Source: Dentipellis sp. KUC8613
Taxonomy: Eukaryota > Basidiomycota > Agaricomycetes > Russulales > Hericiaceae
Length of the DNA stretch: 64,000 bases
Direction of reading: 5' to 3'
Assembly: GCA_002286715.1 (NCBI GenBank)
Contig: NSJX01000030.1
Location: 290,904-354,903 of the forward strand
In this document: piece after piece, positions 57,224 through 60,200 of the stretch
Layout of the letters: each line of letters starts with the position of its first letter
Position numbering within the stretch: position 1 is the first letter of the stretch
The notes under the pieces: model-generated
The model's database searches: none
The model's input: the letters and a program-made list of their open reading frames with translations, nothing else
What the model was told of the DNA's origin: nothing
Position numbers and translations under genes: made by a program

Positions 57224-60200
57224 TCAGCGCGTCTTAGTGGCATTGACAACGCTGCTCTTCAAGACGCCAGCATTGACGCTACCCCCAGCAACGGGGCGTG
57301 TAAGCTTGTTCGCACCTAGTATCACGGCGTCAGTCGGTAACTGCATTCTCGATGCCCAAAGCAGCAGCAGGCCGCCAAAGCGCGTACCATTGTGAACGAC
57401 AAACTGAGCGCTCGCGAAAGCGTCCAGATTCGCAAACGCTGCATGGTAAGTTCAAGCGTAAGCAGCAATCCGCGATCACGAGCGGAAAGATATGCTCACT
57501 GATGTTGTTCATGGCGTAGTACGTCGCCGTGAGCGTGTCCGGGTTGATCGTGAGCGTGAAGAAGCCGCGGTACGAGCCCTCGCTCCACTGCAGCTCGTCG
57601 TTCACCGCGACGAGGACGTCCGAGATCTTGTCCGCGGCGGGCGGGGAGATGTTGGTGCCAAAGGAGGAGCCGGAAGTCACTGCGGTGCCGGCAAATTCGA
57701 CGCCGATGGCGCCTTTGCCGCTGACGGGGTCGTAGCTGCCAGGATGGTAGACGATGTCAGTTTGCATCATGGGCGTCGGCGGTGGTGGTAGTTGAGTATA
57801 CTTACCTGGTGTCATTGGGGTCTGTTCGTGATGGACGTGCGAATTGGTACGTCAGTAGGTGCAGAGTGGTGAGCGGAGGCCCGTCTACGTACGAGCGAGG
57901 TCGGAGACCCAGTTGGCGTGGCTATCTCCCGAGAGGATGATGGTGTTGTCGATCTTGTTCTCGTAGAGGTGGTCCAGGACACGTTGCCTGTTGGCGCGGT
58001 AGCCATCCCAAGCATCCTAAAAGCGAAACACGTAAGTCCAGGCGAGAATGCGCCAAGTGATCATGGTGGCATGTACCAAGTCGACTAAAGCACAGAAGCT
58101 TCAGAGATCGGCGTGTGCACGAGAAGCGGGTGGAGACTTACAGACTCCGGACTCGTTCAGTTGTGTGAACACGATCTGCTGCCTAGCGAAAGACATGTGT
58201 TAGGATCTCTGGGCGTTTCTAGAGTCCGTCGGCGTCTCTTACCCCACCACGCGCCAAACGGCTCCTCTGGACTTCGATTCGGACAAGCTGTCGAAGAACC
58301 CTGGAGCACGCCGTCAGTCGAAGAATGATGAAGAAGCCAACGGAACGCACAGTTTTCTTGCGGAAGCCCCATGAGAGATCGATTAGGGTATGCCGCGATG
58401 GTGTTGACGTCTTAGAAACGCGTTGTCAATCTCCGTACTGAGCATTCATCATGGCGCACTCACATTCTGGATAGATTTGTCAATGTTATTAAGTTATGTG
58501 TCTCGCGTGCAAGAAAGTGGGAATATACGGACCAGTGTTGTAGTAAACCTGCGAATTCCAGACCATCAGTGGTGTTGTACAGATGAGTTTACGAGCCTTC
58601 TTACGTCTGTCAAGTCACGGTCATACTGGCCTGCACGCGTATAGCGGTAAGCATGCGGCTCCCAACCGTTGACTTACGGACAGCTTACGTGTATCTAGCA
58701 TGGTCAAGTCCTATGGAACGCTCAGACATCAACGAGCTCTCGCGTAAAGCATCTCGCAAGGCAATCTCACCAGAAGCTTTCCGATCTGGAAGTTGCGCCA
58801 GATTCTCAGTTTGTCGTCGGCGGTCACCTGCCTAACGGGCATCCACTCGTGGTAGGCGCGTACAGCAGCCAGCTTCCTGTCCGTGAAGCAGGCGCCAGAT
58901 GGGGAGAACGCGCATCCGATGCTGGTGTCGTTCGAATCGGCCGTTCCCGCTTTCCACGAGTTATCCGCTACCTGTCCGGAGTGTTTCATGAGTTTGACAT
59001 TCGGCGTCGTCGGAGTGTGAGCTTCATTTACCTCATGATCATCCTATACAAGTGGCGATACATCAGCGACGGCGCCGGCGAGAACCCTAAACACAAAATG
59101 ACAACCCACCCTGGCGCGGAACGATGTAAGCTGGGTTATCCTAGGTTTCAGCGATACGAGTAAATGATACGCACCATACAGTGATCCACGGCGCATTCTG
59201 ATGGGCGAAGAGGAGACTGGCGTCTGTCCTGTACTGATTCAGGCGCTGCCTGTAGTCGTGGATTGTTGCGAGCTCGCGGCCGAGGGTCTGACGACCAATA
59301 TGCGCTCCATTGCCTAATGATTCGTAGATCTCAAGGATGGGACCAATGTGAATTGATGTAGGGCCACCTCTGATGTATATGTACTCACGTAGTCGCCGAG
59401 ATGCACGAATACATCTGCGGAGGTGTTGTGTGCGGCAACACCGTAAGCATTGAACCATCCTAGAAAATGCGTCATTCAATCATTACGTGTGGACATAGCT
59501 TTGACAAGGAACGCTGACCTGCTTGATATTGCGAGCACGAGAAGACTGCCAGCGTCAGGTTCTTCCCGCCATTGACTTCGTGCGCTGGAGCTTAATCAGA
59601 CGCCAGTCATGAGTTTTCTTTCGGCTGTGCGACAGTGGCTATGATCTTACTGTCCGGGTTTGACAAAGTCCTTGTAACGCCCGTAGGGCTCACGCTTGAA
59701 GGGTTCGTGCAGTCAGCAAAGACGAACCAATACTTGGTGTCCGCCTTCAGACCAGTAGCTTCTACCTTCACGGTGAAGTCAACGTCGTAGGATGTGAAAG
59801 CTTCGCCAGTGTTGACAGGTCTACCGGCCAGCGACGGGGTGCTGAAAACTTTGTACGAAACGCAAACAGGGACACTCTGGTCGGGCCCAGGTGACGTGCT
59901 ATTCGTAACGGGAACCGCCCGCGTCCAGAGCAAGACAGAAGTGTCGAACGGGTCTCCCTGATTAAACGTATAAGGCCTACGTTCAGGGCGACTGTATGCA
60001 ACTCACGCTAGCAACTGCATATACCAACGTTAACAGAGATCCGATTGTACGCCCTTAAAGAACCACATACCTGAATGCGTAAAATTGAGACCGCCGTTCC
60101 ATACAAAAGGGCTCTGATCGAGAAATCAGCTGATCGAGAAGGTACAAGCTTCCGTCCGTCACCGACATTACTGAAGTCAGCACCGTAAAAGGTAGGGTAA

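What the first reader, a model, noticed from the sequence alone, without database searches (positions are those of the whole stretch)
59110..59110. Predicted one-nucleotide exon in the PhoD phosphatase gene
Between the exon ending at 59175 (..ATC ACT GTA TG) and the exon GATGATCATGAG (59043-59032) lie 131 bases. Read as one intron (donor at ACT) they give ITDDHE and lose the tryptophan of the PhoD signature WDDHE. Read as two introns with a single G between them (59174-59111, 64 nt, gtgcgt...cgccag; and 59109-59044, 66 nt, gtgggt...tatag) they give ITVWDDHE. Both introns have the window's normal length, GT-AG ends and a branch-like site close to the acceptor (CTTAC, CTGAT). Only the 1-nt exon restores phase and motif together. 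One-base exons are known from very few eukaryotic genes, so a clean example beside a metal-site motif would be notable.
Basis: partly seen in the sequence, partly recalled or inferred. Interest (0 to 1): 0.9.

Follow-up and report, generated by a model that had tools for sequence, protein, structure and literature searches.

The report
One-base exon in mushroom phosphatase gene
A fungal phosphatase gene appears to carry an exon only one base long, which completes the tryptophan codon of its metal-site motif; the same odd structure seems to be shared by many mushroom-forming fungi and to have garbled most of the published gene models examined here.

Summary
On the minus strand lies an intact PhoD-type phosphatase gene: 24 exons, 23 GT-AG introns (49-72 nt), 615 aa. 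The 131 bases before DDHE are best read as a 64-nt intron, one G (59110) and a 66-nt intron: first of 57 frame-keeping, stop-free splice paths. An equally good AG-G-GT arises in about 0.5% of shuffles.

Relatives give indirect support. All 10 transcript-like homologues read (V/I)WDDHE, but only 33 of 125 genome-annotated models from Agaricomycetes outside Cantharellales and Auriculariales do. Those two orders are intact, 11 of 11 and 3 of 3. Most ordinary junctions of the gene rarely fail; a second ultra-small exon (3 nt) fails as often. So the 1-nt exon is probably old and shared.

Correction: a second AG-G-GT (G 59086) would give the same mRNA, so cDNA alone cannot say which G is used. One-base exons are already published (plant APC11 and VPS55, Fusarium CYP621A, fungal mitochondrial rnl). 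This is a new member of a known kind, apparently spread over several basidiomycete orders. No RNA from this species and no genomic DNA of relatives was available.

The parts
57224..60441 (-). PhoD-type phosphatase gene, ATG (60441) to TGA (57224), 24 exons, 615 aa; N-terminus looks like a signal peptide (by eye, not tested)
   Evidence: Exon joining gives one open frame; Pfam PhoD E=1e-103 and PhoD_N 3e-20; no other PhoD gene among the scored candidates in the 34.1-Mb own genome
59175..59329 (-). Exon 8 (155 nt), ends ...PWITV + TG of the Trp codon, phase 2
59111..59174 (-). Intron 8, 64 nt, gtgcgt...cttac...cgccag
   Evidence: Donor 8.1 bits, acceptor 2.6 bits, within the leave-one-out range of the other 21 introns; CTTAC at -17
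59110..59110 (-). Exon 9: single G, third base of the TGG (Trp294) codon of WDDHE
   Evidence: Best of 57 frame-keeping paths; chance of an equally good site 0.55%; shared annotation failure in relatives
59044..59109 (-). Intron 9, 66 nt, gtgggt...ctgat...tatag
   Evidence: Donor 4.6 bits, acceptor 6.7 bits; CTGAT at -20
59032..59043 (-). Exon 10, 12 nt, GATGATCATGAG = DDHE
59086..59086 (-). Rival single G in a second AG-G-GT (introns 88 and 42 nt); would give the same mRNA
   Evidence: 16.3 bits against 22.0; both introns outside the gene's length range
58464..58466 (-). Exon 15, 3 nt, AAT: completes the E and Y codons of YNTEYV (G|AA T|AC)
   Evidence: the site is broken in 77 of 112 genome models and 0 of 8 transcript-like homologues
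60007..60014 (-). Exon 4, 8 nt, TTGCTAGC (part of VAS in FTHSVASGDP)
58077..58084 (-). Exon 19, 8 nt, TCGACTTG (part of FDL in VFDLDAWDGY)
57806..57821 (-). Exon 21, 16 nt (within DLAHPNDTSYD)

Best explanation
The gene carries a constitutive one-nucleotide exon. Two ordinary short introns stand one base apart inside and just after the Trp codon of WDDHE (phase 2: TG^G; phase 0: TGG^GAT). Each is recognised as a short unit by intron definition (its own 5' site, branch point and AG). Because the acceptor of the first and the donor of the second overlap (cag|G|gtgggt), they are unlikely to be occupied together, so the introns are removed one after the other; either order leaves a usable site. 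The mature mRNA reads GTA TGG GAT GAT CAT GAG and the protein keeps its metal-site motif. Shown here: sequence, coordinates, splice-site scores, open frame, protein-level conservation. Inferred: actual splicing, sequential removal, constitutive use, and that many core Agaricomycetes share the structure.
For: The gene joins to an intact 615-aa PhoD protein with WDDHE only if one G is supplied here. The 64/1/66 path is first of 57 frame-keeping stop-free paths; chance of an equally good AG|G|GT 0.55%. 131 nt is twice the gene's mean intron of 59 nt and outside its range of 49-72. W is present in 80 of 80 bacterial relatives kept. Transcript-like homologues 10 of 10 intact against 33 of 125 genome models (Fisher p=4.9e-6, relatedness not corrected). 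At this junction 78 of 112 models have an indel, against 1-17 of 112 at 14 of the 15 junctions that touch no 1-, 3- or 8-nt exon. Two models of one species (Lentinula aff. detonsa), identical at 603 of 612 aligned residues, differ here by exactly VW. Six of 26 inserts look like a whole second intron retained in frame, beginning V (GTN) and ending Q (CAG): P0004, P0018, P0060, P0061, P0084, P0085. Single C or Y inserts fit a donor shifted by 4 nt (GTGC|GT, GTAC|GT; inference).
Against: No RNA from this species and no genomic DNA of any relative could be read. That the 10 homologues are transcripts is inferred from uninterrupted ORFs on unnamed contigs (1,978-9,722 bp), not from labels. 33 of 125 genome models are intact at WDDHE, among them Stereum hirsutum and three recalled Phallomycetidae (Ramaria, Sphaerobolus, Hysterangium); some lineages may lack one of the introns. 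The 33 models that lose DDHE could partly reflect the 12-nt exon rather than the 1-nt one. The 15th junction (21-22) fails more often still (100 of 112) but also in 7 of 8 transcript-like homologues, and away from junctions six-residue windows reach 98 of 112 (mean 4.4), so indels alone do not prove splicing trouble. The middle donor (4.6 bits) and acceptor (2.6 bits) are ordinary rather than strong. A second AG-G-GT lies 24 nt downstream.
Confidence: 0.88

Rival explanations
1. A one-nucleotide exon is used, but it is the G at 59086 (introns of 88 and 42 nt), not the one at 59110. The mRNA is the same.
For: tttag|G|gttctc is frame-keeping and gives VWDDHE.
Against: 5.7 bits weaker, donor GTTCTC is poor; both introns lie outside the gene's range of 49-72 nt; the nearest branch-like element lies 41 nt from that acceptor.
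Confidence: 0.05
2. A single 136-nt intron from the donor after ACT (59179-59044) removes Val and Trp and gives ITDDHE; the W is dispensable here or the product is a second isoform.
For: Canonical GT-AG, in frame; 20 of 125 Agaricomycete models are annotated with the same skip.
Against: Score 6.5 against 22.0; length outside the gene's range; W kept in all 80 bacterial relatives kept and all 10 transcript-like fungal homologues; one species has both annotations for near-identical proteins.
Confidence: 0.03
3. Assembly error or recent indel: the true genome has one more G before GATGAT, so that a single 131-nt intron suffices, or this allele is broken.
For: Only one copy of the locus was found, so there is nothing to check it against.
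Against: The same junction fails in 92 of 125 models of other fungi; the rest of the gene is intact; an AG-G-GT of fair quality splits the gap into two normal introns.
Confidence: 0.03
4. A non-canonical single intron (TG-AG after TGG, or GT-TA) removes 130-131 nt.
For: It would keep WDDHE in frame without a tiny exon (sequence).
Against: Non-canonical borders, when all 23 introns of the model are GT-AG, and about twice the normal length. It would not explain relatives' models that keep a V...Q stretch resembling a second intron.
Confidence: 0.01

Closest known systems
Fusarium CYP621A one-nucleotide exon (PMC12940212; parts 1 and 2 of 3 read)
   Same: Fungal nuclear gene; candidate exon AGGGT; phase mismatch inside a conserved motif (PKG); gene models wrong at the spot; 139-nt 'intron', more than twice the median; shared across species.
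   Different: Ascomycete P450 in one genus, confirmed by 18 RNA reads; here a basidiomycete phosphatase, apparently in several orders, without reads, and with a 3-nt exon in the same gene.
Plant APC11 and VPS55 1-nt microexons (PMC4674806, part 1 of 3 read; PMC8831610, passages)
   Same: Conserved 1-nt exon between two introns, missing from reference annotations; in most monocots APC11 is intronless instead.
   Different: Plants, longer introns (a 422-nt interval in Arabidopsis APC11), proven by RT-PCR and reporter constructs.
Fungal mitochondrial one-nucleotide exon in rnl, Ophiostoma strain WIN(M) 502 (PMC12308204, passages)
   Same: A single base separates two adjacent introns in a fungus.
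   Different: Mitochondrial rRNA gene with group II introns, not spliceosomal.
Phanerochaete chrysosporium P450 microexons (PMC1184071, passages)
   Same: Agaricomycete genes with 45-55-bp introns and tiny exons.
   Different: Shortest exon reported there is 6 bp; here 1 and 3 nt.
Placozoan mitochondrial cox1 single-base-pair exon (PMC5436844, search listing only)
   Same: Exon of one base.
   Different: Mitochondrial gene, not spliceosomal (recalled).

Membership tests
One-nucleotide spliceosomal exon | Single base between AG and GT, flanked by two introns with normal signals | tested here: met
   cgccag|G|gtgggt, 64- and 66-nt introns, branch-like CTTAC and CTGAT
One-nucleotide spliceosomal exon | Without it the reading frame or conserved motif is lost | tested here: met
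   Of 57 frame-keeping paths, 7 contain WDDHE and 2 contain VWDDHE, both with a 1-nt G exon (59110 or 59086)
One-nucleotide spliceosomal exon | Conserved in relatives | tested here: inconclusive
   Indirect only: 92 of 125 models fail at the junction, 10 of 10 transcript-like homologues are intact; no relatives' genomic DNA could be read
One-nucleotide spliceosomal exon | Base present in the mature mRNA | not testable with these tools
   No RNA data for this species
PhoD phosphatase | PhoD domain over its curated cut-off | tested here: met
   PF09423 347 bits against cut-off 27, positions 1-343 of 343
PhoD phosphatase | W-D-D-H-E motif | tested here: met
   Met as VWDDHE only in a 1-nt-exon reading; aligns to WDDHE of 2yeq and 9uya
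PhoD phosphatase | Phosphatase activity | not tested
Stwintron (intron nested in another intron's splice site; definition recalled) | Outer intron's donor, branch or acceptor created only after excision of an inner intron | tested here: not met
   Both introns have complete sites of their own in the genome sequence; donor 2 scores 4.58 before and 4.01 after removal of intron 1

The most novel reading that the evidence does not exclude
A one-nucleotide exon inside the active-site motif of a phosphatase has been kept across several orders of mushroom-forming fungi, having arisen after their split from Cantharellales and Auriculariales. It sits in a gene that also holds a shared 3-nt exon, and the pair has silently corrupted most published models of this enzyme.
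Probability: 0.78. Interest if true: 0.72.

Novelty: new member of a known kind. Interest (0 to 1): 0.62.

Why it matters
It would be the first one-base exon in a nuclear basidiomycete gene as far as the listings of nine paper searches show (open-licence PMC only, long listings cut). It appears to reach across several orders, whereas the fungal nuclear precedent is one genus. It would show that short, intron-defined splicing sets no lower limit on exon length. It also explains why 92 of the 125 Agaricomycete PhoD models counted are wrong at or around the metal site, an error that passes into family alignments and enzyme choice.

Tried and rejected
Genomic DNA of relatives: two protein-pattern scans of viral contigs found none; the one scan of prokaryote genomes returned 80 loci whose record titles are all bacterial, used for W conservation. 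Paralogues in the own genome: none among the scored candidates. Metagenome contigs were capped at zero and not tried. Structure prediction was not run because it does not bear on splicing. The stwintron idea was rejected (both introns have complete sites). My first motif pattern for bacteria required too long a gap and matched 0 of 80; it was corrected, and three mis-hits to an upstream DDYR were settled by inspection. Counted apart from the 125 models: 10 transcript-like, 11 Cantharellales, 3 Auriculariales (149 in all). The three protein searches list the best 120 of about 7,900 hits each, so the sample is the nearest relatives. Orders of most genera are recalled; Gloeopeniophorella, Ceratobasidium and Auriculariales were looked up. 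PMC3990503, PMC6506933 and PMC8208691 were checked by passages for a basidiomycete or other fungal case: the first two hold none, the third only cites others in the passages shown.

Full report
Observation. The minus strand was read from 60800 to 57500. All coordinates of the two-intron reading are right: exon end 59175, intron 59174-59111 (64 nt), G at 59110, intron 59109-59044 (66 nt), DDHE exon 59043-59032. The slips are the start of the one-intron alternative (donor 59179, last exon base 59180, 136 nt) and the claim that no other reading restores phase and motif.

Gene model. I delimited exons by eye, from splice sites and from recalled PhoD homologues, and joined them in scripts. The result is 24 exons and 23 introns, all GT-AG, 49-72 nt, and one 615-aa frame from ATG 60441 to TGA 57224. 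It matches PhoD (1e-103) and PhoD_N (3e-20) and aligns through WDDHE with the solved phosphatases 2yeq and 9uya. The gene is cut very finely: besides the 1-nt exon there are exons of 3 (AAT, 58466-58464), 8, 8, 12, 16, 16, 22 and 26 nt. No other PhoD gene was seen among the scored candidates in the 34.1-Mb assembly. The nearest relative is Gloeopeniophorella convolvens, Russulales, 81% identity.

Splice-site test. Donor and acceptor matrices were trained on the other 21 introns. One- and two-intron paths (40-150 nt introns, GT or GC donors) between the PWIT exon and DDHE were listed: 820, of which 57 are in frame and free of stops. The 64/1/66 path is first (22.0 bits). Second is a 28-nt exon that breaks the motif (GWVDDHE, 18.2). 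The single ACT-donor intron has 6.5 bits, the +4 donor (WCDDHE) 3.1. Seven paths contain WDDHE, two contain VWDDHE: this one and the second AG-G-GT at 59086 (16.3 bits, introns of 88 and 42 nt), which gives the same mRNA. The middle acceptor (2.6) and donor (4.6) lie within the leave-one-out range of the other sites (acceptors 0.3-7.4, donors 1.6-11.4). Chance: AG|G|GT in a permitted place in 3.1% of 20,000 shuffles, with an equal score in 0.55%. This alone would be suggestive rather than conclusive.

Motif. W precedes DDH in all 80 bacterial relatives kept, the best 80 of 589: 77 by pattern, the other three by inspection. 19 of the 80 hold a search pattern that itself contains the W; without them the count is 61 of 61.

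Comparative test. Three protein searches gave 149 homologues. Ten come from unnamed lgn or jgi contigs (1,978-9,722 bp, seven under 4.1 kb) with uninterrupted ORFs of 598-617 aa; for a gene with 23 introns I infer that they are spliced RNA. All 10 read (V/I)WDDHE. Of 125 genome-annotated models from Agaricomycetes other than Cantharellales and Auriculariales, 33 do; 20 skip VW, 26 insert residues, 33 lose DDHE and 13 change upstream. Three of the 125 also lack much of the eight residues before the motif, and loss of DDHE may partly reflect its 12-nt exon. Failures and successes mix within genera: Mycena 7 of 21 intact, Lentinula 1 of 9; of nine models from recalled Russulales, one (Stereum) is intact. 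Two Lentinula aff. detonsa models, identical at 603 of 612 aligned residues, differ here by exactly VW. That is what annotation noise over a structure no gene finder allows should look like. Outgroups read cleanly: Cantharellales 11 of 11, Auriculariales 3 of 3. Three recalled Phallomycetidae (P0029, P0040, P0070) are intact at WDDHE but broken at the 3-nt exon, so the 1-nt exon may be younger than the 3-nt one.

Internal control. Among the first 120 homologues (112 genome models, 8 transcript-like), indels at each of 23 junctions were counted. The 1-nt exon: 78 of 112 and 0 of 8. The 3-nt exon: 76-77 of 112 and 0 of 8. Junctions of the 8-nt exons: 13-34 of 112 (0-1 of 8). Of the 15 other junctions, 14 have 1-17 of 112; junction 21-22 has 100 of 112 and 7 of 8, a naturally variable stretch. 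Six-residue windows away from junctions average 4.4 of 112, with a maximum of 98. So the two smallest exons stand out where transcripts do not vary, though indels alone prove nothing.

Retained-intron traces. Of 26 models with residues inserted between W and DDHE, six (P0004, P0018, P0060, P0061, P0084, P0085) carry 18-21 residues that begin with V and end with Q, as a retained GTN...CAG intron would. Single C or Y inserts fit a donor moved by 4 nt (GTGC|GT as here, or GTAC|GT). These are inferences from protein.

Mechanism. Short fungal introns are thought to be recognised across the intron (recalled), so exon length need not matter. Acceptor 1 and donor 2 overlap, so removal should be sequential (inferred); donor 2 scores about the same before and after removal of intron 1 (4.58, 4.01). 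G is the commonest base at donor -1 (9 of 21) and acceptor +1 (10 of 21) in this gene, so a lone G suits both sites. Origin: either a second intron inserted one base from an older one, or the capture of a cryptic AGGGT after a frame loss, as proposed for Fusarium (PMC12940212); not decided here.

Known cases. Plant APC11 (PMC4674806, part 1 of 3 read) and VPS55 (PMC8831610, passages); Fusarium CYP621A (PMC12940212, parts 1-2 of 3 read), whose authors call it the first for a fungal gene; and a mitochondrial group II case in Ophiostoma (PMC12308204, passages). The listings of nine searches of the open PMC library show no nuclear basidiomycete case; most subscription papers and preprints are not in it.

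Verdict. What is missing is RNA from this species and genomic DNA from its relatives.

Noticed in passing
58466-58464 (-): A 3-nt exon (AAT) in the same gene, also apparently shared: its site is broken in 77 of 112 relatives' genome models but in 0 of 8 transcript-like homologues.
   Followed up: partly
60014-60007 and 58084-58077 (-): Two 8-nt exons in the same gene, TTGCTAGC and TCGACTTG.
   Followed up: partly
60166-60114 (-): Intron 2 has one of the weakest donors of the gene (AAT|gtcggt, 5.0 bits); I chose it because it keeps the frame to SPFVWNGG and did not test alternatives in a script.
   Followed up: no
55621-56556: An HSP70 exon on the + strand (PF00012, 1.5e-116) has a long open frame on the opposite strand that matches Pfam 'NAD-specific glutamate dehydrogenase' (PF10712, 1.4e-68); that family is probably an antisense-of-HSP70 artefact (recalled).
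   Followed up: partly
36854-39346 (-): Longest open frame in the window, 830 aa stop to stop, without a Pfam match.
   Followed up: no
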